Shown here: piece by piece, positions 4,349-42,514 of the stretch
How positions within the stretch are numbered: the stretch's first letter is position 1
Layout: each line of letters opens with the position of its first letter
Assembly: GCA_025451035.1 (NCBI GenBank)
Contig: JANWLE010000012.1
Span: 1 to 49,169, forward strand
Direction: 5' to 3'
Source of the DNA: Solirubrobacteraceae bacterium
GTDB lineage: Bacteria; Actinomycetota; Thermoleophilia; Solirubrobacterales; Solirubrobacteraceae
Length of the DNA: 49,169 nucleotides
Made by a program: the position numbers and the translations under genes
Notes under the pieces: generated by a model
Databases searched by the model: none
Seen by the model: the letters and a program-made list of their open reading frames with translations, nothing else
Told to the model about the DNA's origin: nothing

Positions 4349-5242
4349 ATGGCCACCTGCTACCGACACCCTTCCCGCGAGACGGCGGTCTCGTGCTCGA
4401 ACTGCGGCAGGCCGATCTGCCCCGACTGCATGACCACGACACCGGTCGGGATGCGCTGCCCGGAGTGCGCCAAACAGCGGACCAAGGTGACACGCATGCG
4501 CGACATGTCCGCCGGCCCGCAGCTCACCTACACGCTGATCGTGATCAACGTGATCGCGTTCCTCGCCGAGGGTGGGCGCGTGTTCACTTTCGGCGGCGGC
4601 GAAGGCGGCACGCTCATACGCAAGGGGGCAGTGCTGGGAAGCAGCGACAATCCACTGCTCGCCGGCGAAGGCGTCGCGCACGGACAGCTCTGGCGGCTCG
4701 TCACCGGCGGATTTCTGCACGAGAACCTGCTCCACATCGGCTTCAACATGTACATCCTGTACATACTCGGGATGCAGCTCGAGCCGGTCCTCGGGCGCCT
4801 GCGGTTCGGTGTCATCTACGCCGTGTCGCTGCTCACCGGCTCGCTCGGGGCGCTGATCGTCTCTCCGCACGCTGTCACCATCGGAGCGTCGGGAGCGGTG
4901 TTTGGGATTATGGGCGCGTTTGCCGTGGAGTTGCGCGCGCGTCGAATGCCACTGATGCGGGGCGGCTTCGGCGGGATCGGCGGCCTGATCCTGATCAACC
5001 TGATCTTCAGCTTCACTTTCCCTGGAGTCTCGTGGGGCGGGCACCTCGGCGGGCTGATCGGCGGAGCGCTGGCCGCCCTGCTTCTGCAGCTGGGGGAACG
5101 CAGACGCCTGCGCGCGCTGGCGCTCGCCGGCTGCGCAGTGATCGCCGCGGCCGCCATCGCAGGTTCGATCGTTACCTCCAAGTCAAGCGAAGTCGGGCCC
5201 CTCAGCCAGGCCCCCGCGACCATCTTCAGCCCCGAACCCTGA
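4349..5242 (+). CDS. Rhomboid intramembrane serine protease with N-terminal zinc-binding domain
   Basis: Residues 4-40 carry a B-box-like zinc-binding pattern (C4, H7, C16, C19, C24, C27, C37, C40). The rhomboid core follows with about six TM helices: HENLLHIGFNMY at 124-135, the catalytic serine in GASGAVFG (Ser181), and the catalytic histidine in GGHLGG (His232). Rhomboids cleave substrates within the membrane; the target here is unknown. The N-terminal zinc domain is common in actinobacterial rhomboids. TAGCGT at 4334-4339 lies 9 nt before the ATG and overlaps a GACGCT/AGCGTC dyad (4323-4340). The gene converges on the cobalamin-binding-like gene, with an 18-bp gap holding a hairpin. Confidence 0.93.
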   Translation: MATCYRHPSRETAVSCSNCGRPICPDCMTTTPVGMRCPECAKQRTKVTRMRDMSAGPQLTYTLIVINVIAFLAEGGRVFTFGGGEGGTLIRKGAVLGSSDNPLLAGEGVAHGQLWRLVTGGFLHENLLHIGFNMYILYILGMQLEPVLGRLRFGVIYAVSLLTGSLGALIVSPHAVTIGASGAVFGIMGAFAVELRARRMPLMRGGFGGIGGLILINLIFSFTFPGVSWGGHLGGLIGGALAALLLQLGERRRLRALALAGCAVIAAAAIAGSIVTSKSSEVGPLSQAPATIFSPEP

Positions 5243-5243
5243 G

Positions 5244-5258
5244 GCGCCGAGGCGGCGC
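5244..5258. terminator. Candidate bidirectional terminator hairpin
   Basis: GCGCCG-AGG-CGGCGC forms a perfect 6-bp stem with a 3-nt loop between two convergent stop codons (5242 on plus, 5261 on minus). No T-run follows, so termination strength is uncertain. Confidence 0.45.
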
Positions 5259-5260
5259 TC

Positions 5261-6163
5261 CTAGCCGGCGAGCTCCACGCTCAGCGCGCGGGCGCCAGTA
5301 GGCGGGCTGCCGAGAAGCTGCGGATGAAGGATGTGGGCCAGCAGCTCCAGGCCGTCGGTCAGACGCGGCCCTGGACGCGAGAAGTACGCGCCGGCGTCGA
5401 CCGCCACTATCCGCCGAGCGCCGAGCGAGGCGAGCTCCCCTGCGTGGGCGAGTGCCTCCTCGTGCGCGCGCCGTGCGTCATATCCGCAGGGCATCACCAC
5501 GACGAGCTCAGGCTGCGCTGCGCGCACCTCCTCCCAGCTGACTGTGTGGGAGGGCTCGCCCGCTAGACCCAGCACGTCGAGGCCGCCGGCGAGCTCGATC
5601 AGTTGAGGGGTCCAGTGGCCGGCGGCGAACACGGGGTTGAGCCACTCGAGCGCCGCGACACGCAACCGCGGCGCCCGTCTGACAGCGAGCTTCACCCGGT
5701 CGATTCGCACCGCGCTCGCGTGCACCAGCTCGACTCCCGCATCGCGGCGAGCGGTGGCCTGCGCGAGCGTGCGCACGTCGCCGAACGTCTCGCCAAAGGT
5801 CTTCGGGTCGAGCGCAATCACGCGCGGCCTGCACGGCAGCTCGCGTGCGAGCAGCGAGACCTCCTCGTAAGACACCGCGCACACCGGGCACAGCGCCTGG
5901 GTGACGATCAGATCCGGTTCGAGCTGCCCGAGCATCTCGCGGTCCAGCTCATAGATCGTCTCCCCGGCGAGCGTGCGCTCACGCACCGCAGCGTCGATCT
6001 CATGGGCCCCGAGCCCCCCTGGCAGTGCGTCACGGGTCAGCTTGGGCAGATCGCCCGCCTCGGGCGGATAGTCGCACTCGTGCGTGACCGCGATAACCTG
6101 TGAACCGAGGCCGAGCGCGAACAGCAGCTCGGTGGCGTGAGGAACGAGACTGGCTATCCGCAC
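5261..6163 (-). CDS. Cobalamin-binding (BtuF-like) periplasmic-binding-fold protein without signal peptide
   Basis: A 300-residue protein beginning RIASLVPHATELLFALGLG, the typical opening of class III substrate-binding proteins of the BtuF/FepB type. CPVCAVSYEEV and PDLIVTQ are characteristic of proteins annotated as cobalamin-binding. It lacks an N-terminal signal or lipobox, and no BtuC/BtuD transporter genes are nearby. A cytoplasmic role, perhaps corrinoid or other cofactor binding, is therefore as likely as transport (inference). The GTG start at 6163 has TAGAGT 9 nt upstream and no Shine-Dalgarno site. It is divergent from the pterin dehydratase, with only 15 bp between start codons. 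Confidence 0.78.
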   Translation of the reverse strand: MRIASLVPHATELLFALGLGSQVIAVTHECDYPPEAGDLPKLTRDALPGGLGAHEIDAAVRERTLAGETIYELDREMLGQLEPDLIVTQALCPVCAVSYEEVSLLARELPCRPRVIALDPKTFGETFGDVRTLAQATARRDAGVELVHASAVRIDRVKLAVRRAPRLRVAALEWLNPVFAAGHWTPQLIELAGGLDVLGLAGEPSHTVSWEEVRAAQPELVVVMPCGYDARRAHEEALAHAGELASLGARRIVAVDAGAYFSRPGPRLTDGLELLAHILHPQLLGSPPTGARALSVELAG

Positions 6164-6178
6164 AGTGGACTGACTCTA

Positions 6179-6457
6179 ATGGGAACGCTCGCAAACGAAC
6201 AGATAGCGGAACGCCTGCGCGAGTCCGCTTGGCGGCATGAGGGCAACGCGATCGTGAGGGATCTCGAGTTCCAGGACTTCAAGCAGGCGATGGCGTTCGT
6301 CAACCGTGTCGCCGAGGAGGCGGAGCGGGCGAACCACCACCCGGACATCCTCGTGCACGGCTGGAACAAGGTTCGCCTGGAACTGTCCACACACTCCGAG
6401 GGTGGCCTGACGCCGGCCGACTTCGAGATGGCTGGGCGGATAGACGGGTTGATCTAA
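6179..6457 (+). CDS. phhB: Pterin-4a-carbinolamine dehydratase
   Basis: A 92-residue protein matching the PCD/DCoH family. It dehydrates 4a-hydroxytetrahydrobiopterin formed by aromatic amino acid hydroxylases, and some members have other pterin or molybdopterin-linked roles. The signature HHP at 53-55 follows a helix (AFVNRVAEEAERANHHPDI). The downstream WNKVRLELSTH segment (62-72) supplies the other conserved residues. The ATG at 6179 matches the family N-terminus; an in-frame codon at 6137 would run back through the divergent gene's start. No phenylalanine hydroxylase is in the window, so the substrate pathway is open. A strong hairpin follows the stop. Confidence 0.9.
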   Translation: MGTLANEQIAERLRESAWRHEGNAIVRDLEFQDFKQAMAFVNRVAEEAERANHHPDILVHGWNKVRLELSTHSEGGLTPADFEMAGRIDGLI

Positions 6458-6480
6458 CCAGCCGCGGCGCGCGTCGCTGG

Positions 6481-6500
6481 GCGACGAGACGGCTCGTCGC
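6481..6500 (+). terminator. Hairpin terminator after the pterin dehydratase
   Basis: GCGACGAG-ACGG-CTCGTCGC is a perfect 8-bp stem with a 4-nt loop, beginning 23 bp after the stop codon at 6457 and followed by TGTTTG. It is a plausible intrinsic terminator with a weak U tract. Confidence 0.6.
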
Positions 6501-6682
6501 TGTTTGCGCAGCTCGAATCTGGCCATCGCTCCTGCTACCGTTTGGCGGGTCGGCAATCGATGAATGACGACCAACCTCCACGAAGTAGCGCGTCCCCGGA
6601 ACTGAGGGGGCGCCCAGACGCCGTTTGGCGGGCCTTCCATTGGGGCCAGGCCCCTCGAGCGCAGACGCGCCTCTGAGCTGGC

Positions 6683-8008
6683 GTGAACGGCCTCAAGCTC
6701 ATCTTCACCGCGGTGCTGATCGCGCTGAATGCGTTCTTCGTGATCGCCGAGTACGCGCTGGTGCGCGCTCGCCGAGCGCGCCTTGAAGTGATGAGTGACG
6801 AAGGGCAGCGCGGCGCCGCGCTCGCGCTGCGCCAGCTCGACCAGATCAACGACTACATCTCCGCCGTGCAGATCGGCGTCACGATGACCTCGATCGGCAT
6901 CGGTGCGCTTGGCGAGCCCGCGCTGGCGAGCATCCTGAAGGGAGCCTTGGGCAACGCCGTCAGCCACGGCGTGGCGGTCGTGATAGCGGTCGTCGTGGCC
7001 TACCTAGTGATCACGGCGACACAGCTGATCGCCGGCGAGATGGTGCCGAAGTTCTATGCGATCGACCGCGCCGAGACTGTCGCCAGGCGCGTAGCCGCCC
7101 CGTTGCGCACGTTCAGCCTCGCCTTCCGTCCCGTGATCGTGGGGCTCACTGCGCTGTCCAGCCGCATCCTGCGGCTGCTCGGCGTTGACATGAACCGCAT
7201 CGAGGCGGGCGGCTCTTCGGAGGAGCTCAAGCGCCTCATCTCCGAGTCGCATGCTGGTGGCCACATCGACCCGGGGGAGGCGGGCATGCTGCGCGGCGTC
7301 TTTCACCTGCACGAACAGGAGGCCCGTCAGGTGATGACGCCGATCCCGGCCGTGGTCACGGTCGGCGTCTCGCAGGACGTCAAGACGGCGCTCGAGCTGT
7401 GCATCTCCTCTGGCCACACCCGCTTGGTCGTGATCGAGGATGACAATCGTGACCGCGTGCGCGGGCTCGTGCACGCCAGCTCGCTCGTGCGCGCGCTGAT
7501 GAGCGAAGGACCGCAGACCTCGCTCCAGCAGCTCGTGCACGACGCCCCGATCGTCCCCGAGACAAAGCCGCTCGACGACCTGCTCGCGGACCTGCAGCGC
7601 GAGCGCACTTCGCTTGCTGTCGTGGTGGACGAGTACGGCCGCGTCGTCGGGATAGTGACCGTCGAGGACATCATCGAGGAGATCGTCGGTGAGATCGCCG
7701 ACGAGACCGATCCGACCGCCGGCGAGGTACGCCGTCTAGCCAACGGGGACTGGCTCGTGCGCGGCCACGTTTCGGTCACCGACCTCGCCGACTACGGCCT
7801 GCAGCTGCCTGTCGACAGCGACGCGTACAACTCGATCGGCGGCTTCGTCTTCGCCGAGCTCGGTCGCCTGCCCAAGCGCGGTGACACTGTCGCCTCCAAC
7901 GGGTTCTCGATCCGTGTCGAGTCGGTCCACGACAACCGCATCGAGGCGGTGCGGATCCGTGACCGTCACCCCGTCTTGCCGCGCCAGAGCCAAGAGCCCG
8001 GTGCCTGA
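6683..8008 (+). CDS. CNNM/CorC-family membrane protein (hemolysin C-like)
   Basis: A 441-residue protein with the standard order for this family. The DUF21/CNNM membrane domain (about 1-190, four hydrophobic stretches) comes first, then two CBS domains (about 210-330). The CBS region includes VVDEYGRVVGIVTVEDIIEE, which is the hallmark of the second CBS. A CorC_HlyC transporter-associated domain (about 350-425) is last. Homologues are implicated in magnesium/cobalt efflux or resistance; the older label hemolysin is misleading. The start is GTG at 6683, where the hydrophobic N-terminus begins; no strong ribosome site is visible. A 225-bp gap upstream holds a terminator and a repeated 12-mer but no gene. 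Confidence 0.9.
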   Translation: MNGLKLIFTAVLIALNAFFVIAEYALVRARRARLEVMSDEGQRGAALALRQLDQINDYISAVQIGVTMTSIGIGALGEPALASILKGALGNAVSHGVAVVIAVVVAYLVITATQLIAGEMVPKFYAIDRAETVARRVAAPLRTFSLAFRPVIVGLTALSSRILRLLGVDMNRIEAGGSSEELKRLISESHAGGHIDPGEAGMLRGVFHLHEQEARQVMTPIPAVVTVGVSQDVKTALELCISSGHTRLVVIEDDNRDRVRGLVHASSLVRALMSEGPQTSLQQLVHDAPIVPETKPLDDLLADLQRERTSLAVVVDEYGRVVGIVTVEDIIEEIVGEIADETDPTAGEVRRLANGDWLVRGHVSVTDLADYGLQLPVDSDAYNSIGGFVFAELGRLPKRGDTVASNGFSIRVESVHDNRIEAVRIRDRHPVLPRQSQEPGA

Positions 8009-8029
8009 GGCACACCGCCCCGAAAACAA

Positions 8030-8058
8030 GTCCGGCCCGCGGGGGCTGCGGGCCGGAC
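8030..8058. terminator. Long perfect hairpin between convergent genes
   Basis: GTCCGGCCCGC at 8030-8040 and GCGGGCCGGAC at 8048-8058 form an 11-bp perfect stem with a 7-nt loop, 21 bp after the CNNM-family stop codon. No poly-T follows. It probably ends transcription of the plus-strand gene and may act in both directions. Confidence 0.6.
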
Positions 8059-8190
8059 GTGTGCACTGGGAGGAGGCGGGTTGTGCGTTTGCGATTTTTG
8101 ATCGCACGACGAGTATGCCCAGGTTGGATCAACGCAACCTAAAAGCCACCTCAGCCAAGCTAAATTCTCGATGAGGAATTACCGAGAATC

Positions 8191-8985
8191 TCAGTAAGTG
8201 TGAAATCCGCTGCCGCTCTTGCGCCCCAGTGCGCCCTGGTCGATCAGCTCGTTCACGCGCGCGGGGATCGTCTCCCCGATCGTCTCCCCGATCGCCTTGG
8301 AGACATCCAGGCCAACTAGGTCGAGCAGCGCGAGCGGCCCCATCGGGTGGCCGGCGCCGAGCTTCATGCACGTGTCGATCGAGTTGGCGTCCAAGCCGGT
8401 CTCTTCCTGCAGCCGCACGGCACTGAACAGGTAAGGGAACAGCAGGCGGTTGACCACGAAGCCGGGGACATCGGGGATCTCCACAGGGACCTTCTCGAAC
8501 GTGTCGCACAGTGCGAGCGCCCGCTCGCGTGTCTGTTGCGAGGCGGCCTTGGGAAACACGAGCTCGACGAGCTTCATCCTCGTAACCGGGTTAAAGACGT
8601 GCAGCCCGAGGAAACGCTCCGCGCGGCCGGATGCCTGCGCGAGCTGCTCGACCGAAAGCGATGAGGTGGTGGATGCCAGTACGGCGTCCGCGGGCGCGAT
8701 CCCGTTCAATTCCGCCAACAGCGGCGCCTTCACGTCCATGTCCTCGACGACCGCCTCCACGACGAAGGTGGCATCGGCGAGTGCCTGCACGTCGGTGACG
8801 ACCTGCACATGCCCGGGGTCGACCTGTGCTTCCATGCGGCTGAGGGTCTTCTCCACTGTGGTCTTGGCGCGGTCGGCTGAGCTCTGTGAGCGTGCCAGCA
8901 GCAGCACCGGCCCATGGTGTGCGGCGGTTGACGCGAGGCCGCAGGCAATGGCCCCGCTGCCGACTATGGCTAGACGCTCGTTCAC
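8191..8985 (-). CDS. 3-hydroxyacyl-CoA (3-hydroxybutyryl-CoA) dehydrogenase
   Basis: This catalyses NAD-dependent oxidation of 3-hydroxyacyl-CoA, or the reverse reduction in butyrate-type pathways. The Rossmann motif is VGSGAIACGLA (8-18). The catalytic region is GLHVFNPVTRMKLVELV (His129, Glu141), followed by PGFVVNRLL and the C-terminal GHPMGPLALLDLVGLD and GRKSGSGFHTY. At 264 residues it is about 20 shorter than typical 283-residue PaaH/Hbd enzymes, with a compact N-terminal domain. The GTG start at 8985 has AAGGAG about 9 nt upstream. A 12-bp tandem duplication at 8266-8289 encodes IGETIGET near the C-terminus. It is divergent from the thiolase at 9193, and the two would catalyse successive steps. 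Confidence 0.92.
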   Translation of the reverse strand: MNERLAIVGSGAIACGLASTAAHHGPVLLLARSQSSADRAKTTVEKTLSRMEAQVDPGHVQVVTDVQALADATFVVEAVVEDMDVKAPLLAELNGIAPADAVLASTTSSLSVEQLAQASGRAERFLGLHVFNPVTRMKLVELVFPKAASQQTRERALALCDTFEKVPVEIPDVPGFVVNRLLFPYLFSAVRLQEETGLDANSIDTCMKLGAGHPMGPLALLDLVGLDVSKAIGETIGETIPARVNELIDQGALGRKSGSGFHTY

Positions 8986-9039
8986 GCGTGTTGCTCCTTC
9001 TGACCGTGGTTTTCTCGTGGTATTGTGCGGCTCCCAAGA

Positions 9040-9059
9040 ACTGGCTGACTAGCCAGTCA
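9040..9059. promoter_or_regulatory. Operator-like inverted repeat between hydroxyacyl-CoA dehydrogenase and thiolase
   Basis: ACTGGCT-GACT-AGCCAGT (9040-9057) is a perfect 7-bp inverted repeat with a 4-nt spacer. TGACT-AGCC-AGTCA (9046-9059) is a second, overlapping dyad. It lies in the 207-bp divergent region. Size and symmetry fit a TetR-family operator, as is common for fatty-acid genes, but no regulator gene is adjacent, so the binding protein is unknown. Confidence 0.5.
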
Positions 9060-9192
9060 AGCTTGGGTGCGCCGAGCGAAACAGTAGACGACGGTGGGCA
9101 CGGAGTGGCTTCCAAACACGGCCGATGCCGTCCCGCCGAGTGGATGCTCGAGCTGCGGCGCCCCCCAAACGGCGAGGCAAAGGACTTCCACC

Positions 9193-10365
9193 ATGAGGCA
9201 ACCAGAGGGTCGCGAGGTAGTGATCGTGGAGGCGGTGCGCACTCCGATCGGCCGTGGCCACAAGGAAAAGGGCTACTACAAGGACACCCATCCCAACATG
9301 CTCCTCGGCAAGGTCTACACCGAGGTGATCGAGCGGGCGGGGATCGACGCGGCCGAGGTCGAGGATGTCATCGCCGGCTGCGTGCAGCAGTTCGGTGAGC
9401 AGGGCTTCAACATCGCCCGCAACGCGTGGCTGCAGGCCGGACTGCCGATCGAGACTCCCGGCACGACCGTTGACCGCCAGTGCGGATCCGCCCAGCAGGC
9501 CGTGAACTTCGCCGCGGCGCTGATCGCTGCGGGAGTTCACGACGCGATGATCGGCGGTGGCGTCGAGCACATGGGCCACTTCCCGTTCGCGGCGGGCATG
9601 AAGACCCAGCAGGAGTTCGGCATGGCCTTTACCCCAGAGCTGATGGAAAAGCACAACATCGTCGGCCAGGGCCTCGGCGCGGAGATGATCGCCGACGAGT
9701 GGGAGATCCCGCGCTCGGAGCTCGACGAGCTGGCGGTGCGCTCGCACAAACTGGCCCACCGGGCGACCGAGGAGGGTCGCTTCGAGCGCGAGATCGTCCC
9801 GATCTCCGTCAATGGCGACACGTTCATCACCGATCAGGGCATCCGTCCCGACACCAATCTGGAGTCCCTGTCTCAGCTGAAGCCGGCGTTCAAGCCCGAC
9901 GGCAAGATCACCGCCGGCAACAGCTCGCAGATCTCCGACGGCGCCGCGGCCGTGCTGCTGATGAGCGCCGAGAAGGCCAAGGCGCTCGGGCTGAAGGCCC
10001 GCGCGCGGATCGTTGACCAGACGACGGTCGGCTGCGACCCAGTGAAGATGCTGGAGGGGCCGATCCCGGCGACCGCAAAGATCCTCGAGCGCAACAAGAT
10101 GAAGATCGACGACATCGACCTGATCGAGATCAACGAGGCGTTCGCCCCGGTCATAGCGGCGTGGGCGCGGGAGCACCACCCCGACATGGATCGCGTCAAC
10201 GTCAACGGCGGTGCGATGGCACTCGGGCACCCGCTCGGGTCCACCGGCGCGCGGCTGATCACCACACTGCTGCACGAGCTGGAGCGCTCCGACAAGGAGA
10301 TCGGCTTCGTGACGATGTGCTGCGGCGGGGGTCTGGGCACCGCAACGCTCATTCAGCGCGTCTGA
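9193..10365 (+). CDS. Thiolase (acetyl-CoA acyltransferase)
   Basis: A 390-residue thiolase. The nucleophilic cysteine is Cys97 in DRQCGSAQQAV, the histidine is His346 in GGAMALGHPLGSTGAR, and the C-terminal catalytic cysteine is Cys376 in MCCGGGLGTA. NEAFAPV is also conserved. It either cleaves 3-ketoacyl-CoA in beta-oxidation or condenses acetyl-CoA; sequence alone does not decide. The ATG at 9193 aligns with the family N-terminus, and AAAGGA lies about 9 nt upstream. An in-frame ATG at 9094 would add 33 unlikely residues. The divergent neighbour is a 3-hydroxyacyl-CoA dehydrogenase, supporting a shared pathway. A strong terminator follows. Confidence 0.94.
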   Translation: MRQPEGREVVIVEAVRTPIGRGHKEKGYYKDTHPNMLLGKVYTEVIERAGIDAAEVEDVIAGCVQQFGEQGFNIARNAWLQAGLPIETPGTTVDRQCGSAQQAVNFAAALIAAGVHDAMIGGGVEHMGHFPFAAGMKTQQEFGMAFTPELMEKHNIVGQGLGAEMIADEWEIPRSELDELAVRSHKLAHRATEEGRFEREIVPISVNGDTFITDQGIRPDTNLESLSQLKPAFKPDGKITAGNSSQISDGAAAVLLMSAEKAKALGLKARARIVDQTTVGCDPVKMLEGPIPATAKILERNKMKIDDIDLIEINEAFAPVIAAWAREHHPDMDRVNVNGGAMALGHPLGSTGARLITTLLHELERSDKEIGFVTMCCGGGLGTATLIQRV

Positions 10366-40761: not shown

Positions 40762-41598
40762 ATGTCATCAGAGCAACCAGAGGCGAGACGAGACGAGACA
40801 CCGAGCTTGCTGCAGAGCTCGGTGTCGGTCACCCATCCGCCCGACGCGGAGCTCTTCAGGCGGGCGCGCGAGCAGGCTGACGGGCACGCGCGCGAACAAC
40901 TGATCGAGCGTTACCTGCCGCTCGCCAAGCGGCTGGCGCGCCGCTACCAGCGCGCTGAGGAGCCGATCGAGGATCTCGTGCAGGTCGCCTCACTGGGGCT
41001 CGTGAAGGCGATCGACCGCTTCGACCACGGGCGCGAGGTCGTCTTCTCGAGCTATGCGGTGCCGACGATCCTGGGGGAGCTCAAGCGCCATTTCCGTGAC
41101 CGCACGTGGTCTGTGCGCGTACCGCGCGATCTGCAAGAGCTCGCGTTGCGCGTCGACCGGACGATCACCGCGATGTCCGACGGCAAGCGCCGGTCCCCGT
41201 CGGTGAGCGAGATCGCCAAAGCTCTCGATGTCTCCGAGGAGCAGGTGCTCGAGGCGCTGGAAGCCGCCGGCGCCTACCGGGCTGGCTCGCTGGACGCCCC
41301 CCGTTCACCCTCCGGCGAGGAATCCGAGGAAACTCTCGTGGATGTCATCGGCAGCGAGGACGCCGGCTTTGACCGCGCCGAGCAGCGCGCCACGATCGAG
41401 CCGCTCTTCACCCGCATCACAGAGCGCGAGCGGCTTGTGCTGCGCTTGCGCTTTAGCGAAGACTTGACGCAGGCGGAGATCGGCGAGCGCATCGGCGTCT
41501 CACAGATGCAGGTCTCGCGCCTGATCCGCCAGGCGCTGGCGCGGCTGCGCGCGGGGCTCGGCCCCGAGGACGCGGGTTCGCGCAAACGAAAGCAGTGA
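40762..41598 (+). CDS. SigB/SigF-family alternative sigma factor
   Basis: A 278-residue group 3 sigma factor with regions 2, 3 and 4. Region 2 has ERYLPLAKRLARRYQ, DLVQVASLGLVKAIDRFD and FSSYAVPTILGELKRHFRD. Region 3 is around RVPRDLQELALRVDRTI. Region 4 has ITERERLVLRLRFSEDLTQAEIG and a helix-turn-helix (VSQMQVSRLIRQAL). Such sigma factors drive general stress or sporulation regulons and are held by RsbW-type anti-sigma kinases; one is encoded convergently at 42017. GAGG lies about 10 nt before the ATG. The 164 bp upstream hold no gene. Confidence 0.93.
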   Translation: MSSEQPEARRDETPSLLQSSVSVTHPPDAELFRRAREQADGHAREQLIERYLPLAKRLARRYQRAEEPIEDLVQVASLGLVKAIDRFDHGREVVFSSYAVPTILGELKRHFRDRTWSVRVPRDLQELALRVDRTITAMSDGKRRSPSVSEIAKALDVSEEQVLEALEAAGAYRAGSLDAPRSPSGEESEETLVDVIGSEDAGFDRAEQRATIEPLFTRITERERLVLRLRFSEDLTQAEIGERIGVSQMQVSRLIRQALARLRAGLGPEDAGSRKRKQ

Positions 41599-41606
41599 GC
41601 CGCGCG

Positions 41607-42020
41607 CTACGGCAGGTTCATCGCGAGCAGCAGTTCAGCGCTCTCGCCGTCTGGCGAGGGGTCCACCCGCAGCTCGTCGCTCATGTGCTCGAGCACGTTG
41701 CCGATCTCGGGCAGCACCGCGTCCTGCACGAGGCATTCGGCGCTAATCGCGGTCATCTCGCCGACGCGCAGTTCCAGCCGGCCCTCCCGCACGCTGACTT
41801 TCAGCGCCAAGTGCTCGTCACGCACGTGCGCTGGCGCGTGCGCGCACAACGCGTCGCAGAGCAGCATCGCGTCGTCGAGGCGGTCGAGTGGGCAGTCGGC
41901 GCGGGCGAGCATCATCGAGACGACACGGCACAGCACCGGCGCGCTGAGAGGCCCCGCGCTGATGCGCAGCTCAGCCGAGTTCTCCGCCGCTGTTTCTGGA
42001 GCCTCGCCGCCGTCTGTCAC
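41607..42020 (-). CDS. Degenerate RsbW-like protein (HATPase fold without ATP motifs)
   Basis: A 137-residue protein whose strand/helix pattern can be laid over the RsbW encoded just upstream. LRISAGPLSAPVLCRVVSMM matches the first strand and helix, LDDAMLLCDALCAH matches the N-box helix, and LALKVSVREGRLELRVGEM matches the paired strands. AVLPEIGNVLEHMSDELRV matches the last helix. The ATP-binding residues are missing: the ExxxN motif becomes CDALCAH, DxGxG becomes GEMTA, and GLGLG becomes QDAVL. So it probably no longer binds ATP but may still bind sigma, RsbW or an RsbV-type protein (inference). Its GTG overlaps the rsbW stop (GTGA), and it faces the sigma gene eight bases away. Confidence 0.72.
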   Translation of the reverse strand: MTDGGEAPETAAENSAELRISAGPLSAPVLCRVVSMMLARADCPLDRLDDAMLLCDALCAHAPAHVRDEHLALKVSVREGRLELRVGEMTAISAECLVQDAVLPEIGNVLEHMSDELRVDPSPDGESAELLLAMNLP

Positions 42021-42514
42021 GGCTCGGTTGATGGGGCTGAGTGTCGTGGCTTGTCCTCTGCGAGAAGCTGATCCTGATCAGGTCCGTTCGCCGCGCCGAA
42101 CTTCGCCTGCAGGTCGTAGGGATGTTCGTTGCTGAGCGAGAACGTCATCTGTACTTCGGTTCGCTCGTGCTCGTCGCGCCCGAGGTTCACCGACTCAGCT
42201 AGTGAAGCTATCAGGGGCAATCCCAGCCCGAGGCCGGGGCTGTCGGGCCGCGGCGTGATGCCCTTGCCCTCGTCGCGGACGATCACGTGAAGCTCTTTGT
42301 CGGTCAGGTTCGCGAAAACCTCCATCGGCCCTTGGCTGCCGTCCGGGTAGGCGTGCACCACGACGTTGGTGCACGCCTCGGTGACGGCCAAGCGGACATC
42401 CGAGAGGATCTGCGAGTCCATCGCGAACGCTTCGCCGAACGCCCCGAGCGCGTGACGCACGATCGCGATGTTCTCGGGGCGCGCCGGGAGTGTTAGCTGC
42501 ATATCGGGCCTCAT
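42017..42514 (-). CDS. rsbW: RsbW-type anti-sigma factor / serine kinase
   Basis: A 165-residue HATPase (GHKL) protein that should sequester the SigB-type factor and phosphorylate an RsbV-like antagonist. The N-box is EACTNVVVHAYP, G1 is RDEGKGI and G2 is GLGLGLPLI. The tail (130-165) is polar and unrelated to the family core. No anti-anti-sigma (STAS) gene is in the window. It is translated before, and coupled with, the degenerate paralogue. The promoter lies in the 283-bp region shared with gltB; no Shine-Dalgarno site is obvious. Confidence 0.9.
   Translation of the reverse strand: MRPDMQLTLPARPENIAIVRHALGAFGEAFAMDSQILSDVRLAVTEACTNVVVHAYPDGSQGPMEVFANLTDKELHVIVRDEGKGITPRPDSPGLGLGLPLIASLAESVNLGRDEHERTEVQMTFSLSNEHPYDLQAKFGAANGPDQDQLLAEDKPRHSAPSTEP

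What the first reader, a model, noticed from the sequence alone, without database searches (positions are those of the whole stretch)
41607..42514. RsbW followed by a translationally coupled, ATP-site-dead RsbW-like paralogue
The 137-residue partner follows the RsbW fold pattern from first strand to last helix, yet all three ATP-binding boxes are replaced (ExxxN, DxGxG, GLGLG). It is coupled by a GTGA overlap and sits next to the SigB-type sigma gene. A pseudokinase partner could form a heterodimer with RsbW, act as a decoy or tune partner switching without an encoded RsbV nearby. I do not know of this arrangement being described.
Basis: inference. Interest (0 to 1): 0.62.

Follow-up and report, generated by a model that had tools for sequence, protein, structure and literature searches.

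The report
Kinase RsbW paired with dead RsbW
In a soil actinobacterium and many relatives, the kinase-type protein thought to hold a stress sigma factor in check is encoded together with, or fused to, a second copy of the same fold that has lost its ATP site; this second copy most resembles the kinase-less anti-sigma proteins (UsfX type) of other actinobacteria, so one switch may divide kinase and sigma-holding work between two halves.

Summary
Window 42017-42514(-) is an intact RsbW-type kinase/anti-sigma protein. It overlaps by GTGA a 137-aa ORF (41607-42020) whose three ATP boxes are all replaced; a SigB/F-type sigma gene ends 8 bp away (convergent). The partner has no Pfam or NCBIfam match, but its predicted structure matches RsbW, SpoIIAB and UsfX (Z 13.5-15.2), well above ordinary GHKL kinases (8.2). 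The unit is conserved: 141 of 300 class genomes carry the partner domain. In 51 paired loci every first domain keeps the key ATP-box residues and no second domain keeps the set. 31 pairs are separate genes (24 with a 4-bp overlap), 20 are fused, including a second copy in the same genome beside its only other SigB/F-type sigma gene. In many relatives an RsbV-like STAS gene follows directly. The dead domain is not a recent copy of its neighbour: it scores closer to kinase-less UsfX-type anti-SigF proteins. Best reading: a two-part anti-sigma module, a kinase subunit for RsbV plus a UsfX-like subunit that helps hold sigma, probably a 1:1 pseudo-dimer. Complex formation and sigma binding are inferred, not shown. 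New variant of a known kind.

The parts
42017..42514 (-). RsbW-type serine kinase / anti-sigma protein (165 aa), ATP site intact
   Evidence: PF13581 E 4e-26; PDB RsbW 6m36 E 1.4e-11; N, G1, G2 boxes intact
41607..42020 (-). ATP-dead RsbW-fold partner (137 aa), UsfX-like
   Evidence: No Pfam/NCBIfam match; AF2 model pLDDT 78, pTM 0.68; Foldseek 1.8e-6 to RsbW, VIA Z 15.2 to UsfX and RsbW; 38 bits to UsfX-like profile against 2.4 to intact RsbW
42017..42020 (-). GTGA stop/start overlap coupling the two genes
   Evidence: Sequence; a 4-bp NTGA overlap occurs in 24 of 31 split pairs
40762..41598 (+). SigB/SigF-type sigma factor (278 aa), convergent with the pair, likely target
   Evidence: TIGR02980 E 1.3e-81, over cut-off; one of only two over-cut-off sigma genes in the genome, each beside such a unit

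Best explanation
The two genes encode one anti-sigma module built from two RsbW-fold subunits. The first is an ATP-competent RsbW that phosphorylates an RsbV-type STAS protein. The second is an ATP-dead, UsfX-like subunit that provides (half of) the sigma-holding surface. They are made 1:1 by translational coupling or by fusion and probably assemble as a heterodimer (a pseudo-dimer when fused) that sequesters the neighbouring SigB/F-type sigma. When a SpoIIE-type phosphatase dephosphorylates the STAS protein, it binds the kinase half and sigma is released. Shown here: fold (predicted), loss of ATP boxes, conservation, 1:1 gene arrangement, fusion, genomic link to sigma and STAS genes, closeness to UsfX-type proteins. 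Inferred: heterodimer, sigma binding, kinase activity, release.
For: Fold. Key ATP-box residues present in 51 of 51 first domains; the set absent in all 52 second domains. Conserved gene order, 24 of 31 overlaps, 20 natural fusions; AF2 model of a fusion has pTM 0.82 over both domains, suggesting a defined inter-domain arrangement. Helix alpha1, which with beta1 forms the RsbW dimer interface (PMC7340262), is as conserved in the dead domain as in the live one (0.52 and 0.52), while most other elements are less conserved in the dead one. STAS gene directly downstream in 15 of 21 deep-flank modules, with a D-S-T/S motif; one relative has sigma - RsbW - partner - PAS/GAF/SpoIIE phosphatase. UsfX-like profile match: hhalign E 1.8e-12, 27% identity, against 4.5e-5, 10% for the adjacent RsbW type. 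Tree groups dead domains with UsfX-like proteins, 99/97. M. smegmatis divides these jobs between RsbW1 (no kinase activity, binds SigF) and RsbW2 (kinase, does not bind SigF) (PMC7693655, PMC10950880).
Against: No interaction, kinase or sigma-binding data. The dead-domain profile finds B. subtilis RsbW weakly (E 0.046) but not M. tuberculosis UsfX among PDB sequences. UsfX-like proteins grouping with the live domain is not rejected (p-AU 0.36), and long branches could attract dead sequences to each other. The invariant Arg of the dead domain aligns one position off the equivalent of RsbW Arg23, which contacts RsbV.
Confidence: 0.5

Rival explanations
1. Division of labour without a heterodimer: the dead protein alone (as a homodimer) is the anti-sigma factor, as UsfX/RsbW1 is, and the adjacent RsbW only phosphorylates RsbV, as RsbW2 does in M. 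smegmatis.
For: UsfX-like profile; lone ATP-dead homologues sit directly beside sigma genes in related families; M. smegmatis precedent (PMC7693655).
Against: Strict 1:1 coupling, frequent fusion and equal conservation of the dimer helix are not explained.
Confidence: 0.25
2. Antagonist or booster: the dead protein titrates RsbW by heterodimerising and so frees sigma, like RsbW3 of M. smegmatis.
For: RsbW3 lacks kinase activity towards RsfB, binds RsbW1 and raises SigF output when overexpressed (PMC7693655).
Against: A titrating antagonist needs a variable ratio and its own control; here it is coupled or fused 1:1. No SigF-type promoter pattern was found near the pair.
Confidence: 0.12
3. The dead domain does not bind sigma but is a nucleotide-independent sensor or scaffold, for example for STAS or phosphatase proteins.
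For: Highly conserved residues unique to it (AARA, DR, DAL) have no assigned role.
Against: UsfX-like relationship and sigma linkage suggest a sigma role.
Confidence: 0.1
4. A decaying duplicate without function.
For: ATP motifs lost.
Against: Found in 141 of 300 class genomes, one clade (100/99), with conserved motifs of its own.
Confidence: 0.02

Closest known systems
UsfX / RsbW1 (mycobacterial anti-SigF; M. smegmatis RsbW1 showed no kinase activity)
   Same: RsbW fold, ATP boxes degraded, linked to a SigB/F-type sigma gene; its actinobacterial relatives are the closest profile to the partner
   Different: UsfX-like genes elsewhere stand alone beside sigma; here the protein follows, overlaps or is fused to an intact RsbW, and has also lost the N-box Glu that UsfX keeps
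M. smegmatis RsbW1-RsbW2-RsbW3 SigF partner switching (PMC7693655, PMC10950880)
   Same: Kinase and sigma-binding jobs on different RsbW paralogues; an RsbW-RsbW heterodimer is proposed
   Different: There rsbW2 lies with rsfB and the three RsbW genes bear separate locus tags (MSMEG_1803, 6129, 1787); no fusion or 1:1 coupling is described
B. subtilis RsbW / SpoIIAB
   Same: First subunit: PF13581, intact N, G1, G2 boxes; the known dimers use beta1/alpha1 (PMC7340262)
   Different: Canonical systems use two identical active subunits per sigma
Rv1364c-type RsbU-RsbW-RsbV multidomain proteins
   Same: Partner-switching domains fused in one chain
   Different: Fuses phosphatase, kinase and antagonist, not two RsbW domains

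Membership tests
RsbW/SpoIIAB kinase anti-sigma family (ORF 42017-42514) | HATPase_c_2 domain with intact N, G1 and G2 boxes | tested here: met
   PF13581 E 4e-26; motifs in sequence
RsbW/SpoIIAB kinase anti-sigma family (partner 41607-42020) | RsbW-type Bergerat fold | tested here: met
   VIA Z 15.2; Foldseek 1.8e-6, prob 1.00, on a predicted model
RsbW/SpoIIAB kinase anti-sigma family (partner 41607-42020) | Intact ATP-binding boxes | tested here: not met
   E to A, N to H, G1 lost, G2 changed; the set is absent in 52 of 52 relatives
UsfX-type kinase-less anti-SigF | Sequence relationship to UsfX-like proteins | tested here: met
   Profile-profile E 1.8e-12; 38 bits; clade 99/97 but alternative not rejected; no direct PDB sequence match to M. 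tuberculosis UsfX
UsfX-type kinase-less anti-SigF | Linked to a SigB/F-type sigma gene | tested here: met
   8 bp, convergent, in the window; 35 of 51 paired loci have sigma within about 1.5 kb
UsfX-type kinase-less anti-SigF | Binds sigma directly | not testable with these tools
   Needs a binding assay
RsbW3-type antagonist | Expression from a SigF promoter | tested here: inconclusive
   GTTT-N12-18-GGGWA not found near the pair; the promoter consensus in this class is unknown
RsbW3-type antagonist | Physical heterodimer with an RsbW | not testable with these tools
   Only indirect evidence: natural fusions, fusion model pTM 0.82

The most novel reading that the evidence does not exclude
The unit is an obligate asymmetric anti-sigma pseudo-dimer, one live RsbW and one UsfX-like dead subunit, conserved over an actinobacterial class as coupled genes or as a single protein, in which only one half can bind ATP and RsbV while sigma is held by both.
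Probability: 0.4. Interest if true: 0.65.

Novelty: new variant of a known kind. Interest (0 to 1): 0.52.

Why it matters
In the SpoIIAB and RsbW systems one sigma sits on a dimer of identical subunits, which makes it hard to tell which half does what. A natural pair or fusion with one kinase half and one dead half would let kinase, RsbV-binding and sigma-binding roles be tested separately, and would show how the kinase and sigma-binding functions that mycobacteria keep on separate genes can be joined in one module. It would also suggest a function for an unannotated family (window member without a Pfam or NCBIfam match) found in about half of the class genomes sampled.

Tried and rejected
A relative-wide profile (A1) was too diverged for the genome contigs pattern scan; a narrower one (A3) found 14 loci, naming the group Solirubrobacterales/Solirubrobacteraceae. 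Pfam on 29 partner homologues gave only 2 weak HATPase_c_2 hits. I first took the phylum-level hits L117-L132 for canonical RsbW; reading them showed lost ATP boxes and a UsfX relationship. Single origin of the fusion: the best tree needs 2 changes, one origin is not rejected (p-AU 0.19). A SigF-type promoter pattern near the pair: none. Literature searches for an RsbW pseudokinase pair, tandem RsbW, or Solirubrobacter/Thermoleophilia anti-sigma gave nothing describing it; the library lacks most subscription journals. Structure search with the fusion model mainly tested its first domain.

Full report
OBSERVATION. The RsbW ORF (42514-42017, minus strand) and the 137-aa partner (42020-41607) share GTGA. 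RsbW matches PF13581 (E 4e-26) and solved RsbW (E 1.4e-11) and has all three ATP boxes. The partner has no Pfam or NCBIfam match at E 5, and its aligned box positions are A (for E), H (for N), EMTAI (G1) and EIGN (G2). A SigB/F/G-type sigma gene (TIGR02980, over its cut-off) ends 8 bp away on the other strand.

FOLD. AlphaFold2 with 14 homologues gave beta-alpha-alpha-beta-beta-alpha-alpha-beta-beta, pLDDT 78, pTM 0.68. The nearest solved structures are all RsbW, SpoIIAB, UsfX or the RsbU-RsbW protein Rv1364c (Foldseek best 1.8e-6; VIA Z 13.5-15.2). Next come LvrC (11.3) and the RsbW-like SiaB (11.0), then ordinary GHKL kinases from DesK at 8.2. The partner is an RsbW-fold protein.

CONSERVATION. 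Homologues occur in 29 of 41 close genomes and 141 of 300 genomes of the class (107 of 216 good ones). In 52 non-redundant loci, 51 have an intact-box RsbW directly upstream (the other is at a contig end). E and N of the N box, and D and the first G of the G1 box, are present in 51 of 51 first domains; no second domain keeps the set. 31 are separate genes, 24 of these with a 4-bp NTGA overlap, and 20 are fused in one ORF of about 280 aa. The window's genome has exactly two over-cut-off SigB/F/G sigma genes; one is beside the split pair, the other directly upstream of a fused copy on contig C28.

CONTEXT. In the window no RsbV gene is near. In relatives with larger flanks (8-20 kb), a STAS gene, with a D-S-T/S motif where that stretch was read, follows the pair on the same strand in 15 of 21 modules, 74-512 bases after the partner domain. 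These loci were chosen largely because sigma was not within 1.5 kb, so the fraction is not an unbiased estimate. One relative has sigma - RsbW - partner - PAS/GAF/SpoIIE phosphatase with a STAS gene opposite. The window's genome has five STAS and three good SpoIIE genes, one STAS-SpoIIE pair lying beside phoU. I infer a partner-switching system whose antagonist is encoded elsewhere in this genome.

ORIGIN. Proteins found by the partner profile in other actinobacterial classes sit beside SigB/F-type sigma genes and have also lost N, G1 and G2; one of them matches M. tuberculosis UsfX at 1.3e-14. Partner against this UsfX-like set: hhalign E 1.8e-12, 27% identity; partner against the neighbouring RsbW type: 4.5e-5, 10%. 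All 52 dead domains score higher on the UsfX-like profile than on the intact-RsbW profile; the window partner scores 38 against 2.4 bits. In a careful tree the dead domains are one clade (100/99) grouped with the UsfX-like proteins (99/97), but UsfX-like with live domains is not rejected (p-AU 0.36). So the partner is best seen as a strongly diverged UsfX-type protein rather than a recent duplicate of the adjacent RsbW.

MECHANISM. [quoted passage not shown] In M. smegmatis RsbW1, without kinase activity, binds SigF; RsbW2 is the kinase and does not bind SigF; RsbW3, also without kinase activity, is proposed to act by a heterodimer with RsbW1 (PMC7693655, PMC10950880). Joining a kinase RsbW and a UsfX-like subunit 1:1, often in one chain, suggests one module with divided roles, most simply a hetero- or pseudo-dimer. 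Supporting but indirect: fusion model pTM 0.82, and alpha1 equally conserved in both domains while most other elements are weaker in the dead one. Not shown: complex, kinase activity, sigma binding.

NOVELTY. Parts and principle are known; the conserved coupled or fused live-plus-dead RsbW pair was not found in the searched literature. I rate it a new variant of a known kind.

Noticed in passing
L159 5632-5955; L160 8443-8694; L161 8272-8607: Lone ATP-dead RsbW-like proteins directly beside SigB/F-type sigma genes, with no intact RsbW adjacent, in other families of the same class.
   Followed up: partly
L144 8474-10117: A third arrangement: sigma(-), an RsbW-like gene(+) and a partner-type gene(-) converging, in a genome that also has the standard pair.
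   Followed up: no
L153 (G000:C48) 4521-5809; L154 (G000:C93) 1518-2748: Two SpoIIE phosphatase-RsbW fusion ORFs, each followed by a STAS gene, in the window's own genome.
   Followed up: no
L155 (G000:C85) 5620-10138: STAS and SpoIIE phosphatase genes lie directly after phoU and before a response-regulator-like gene, hinting at a link between phosphate sensing and partner switching.
   Followed up: no
window 41607-42020 (model mdefe93671ac6): Leptospira LvrC (9qih), titled a response regulator, matches the RsbW fold at Z 11.3, the best hit outside the RsbW group.
   Followed up: no
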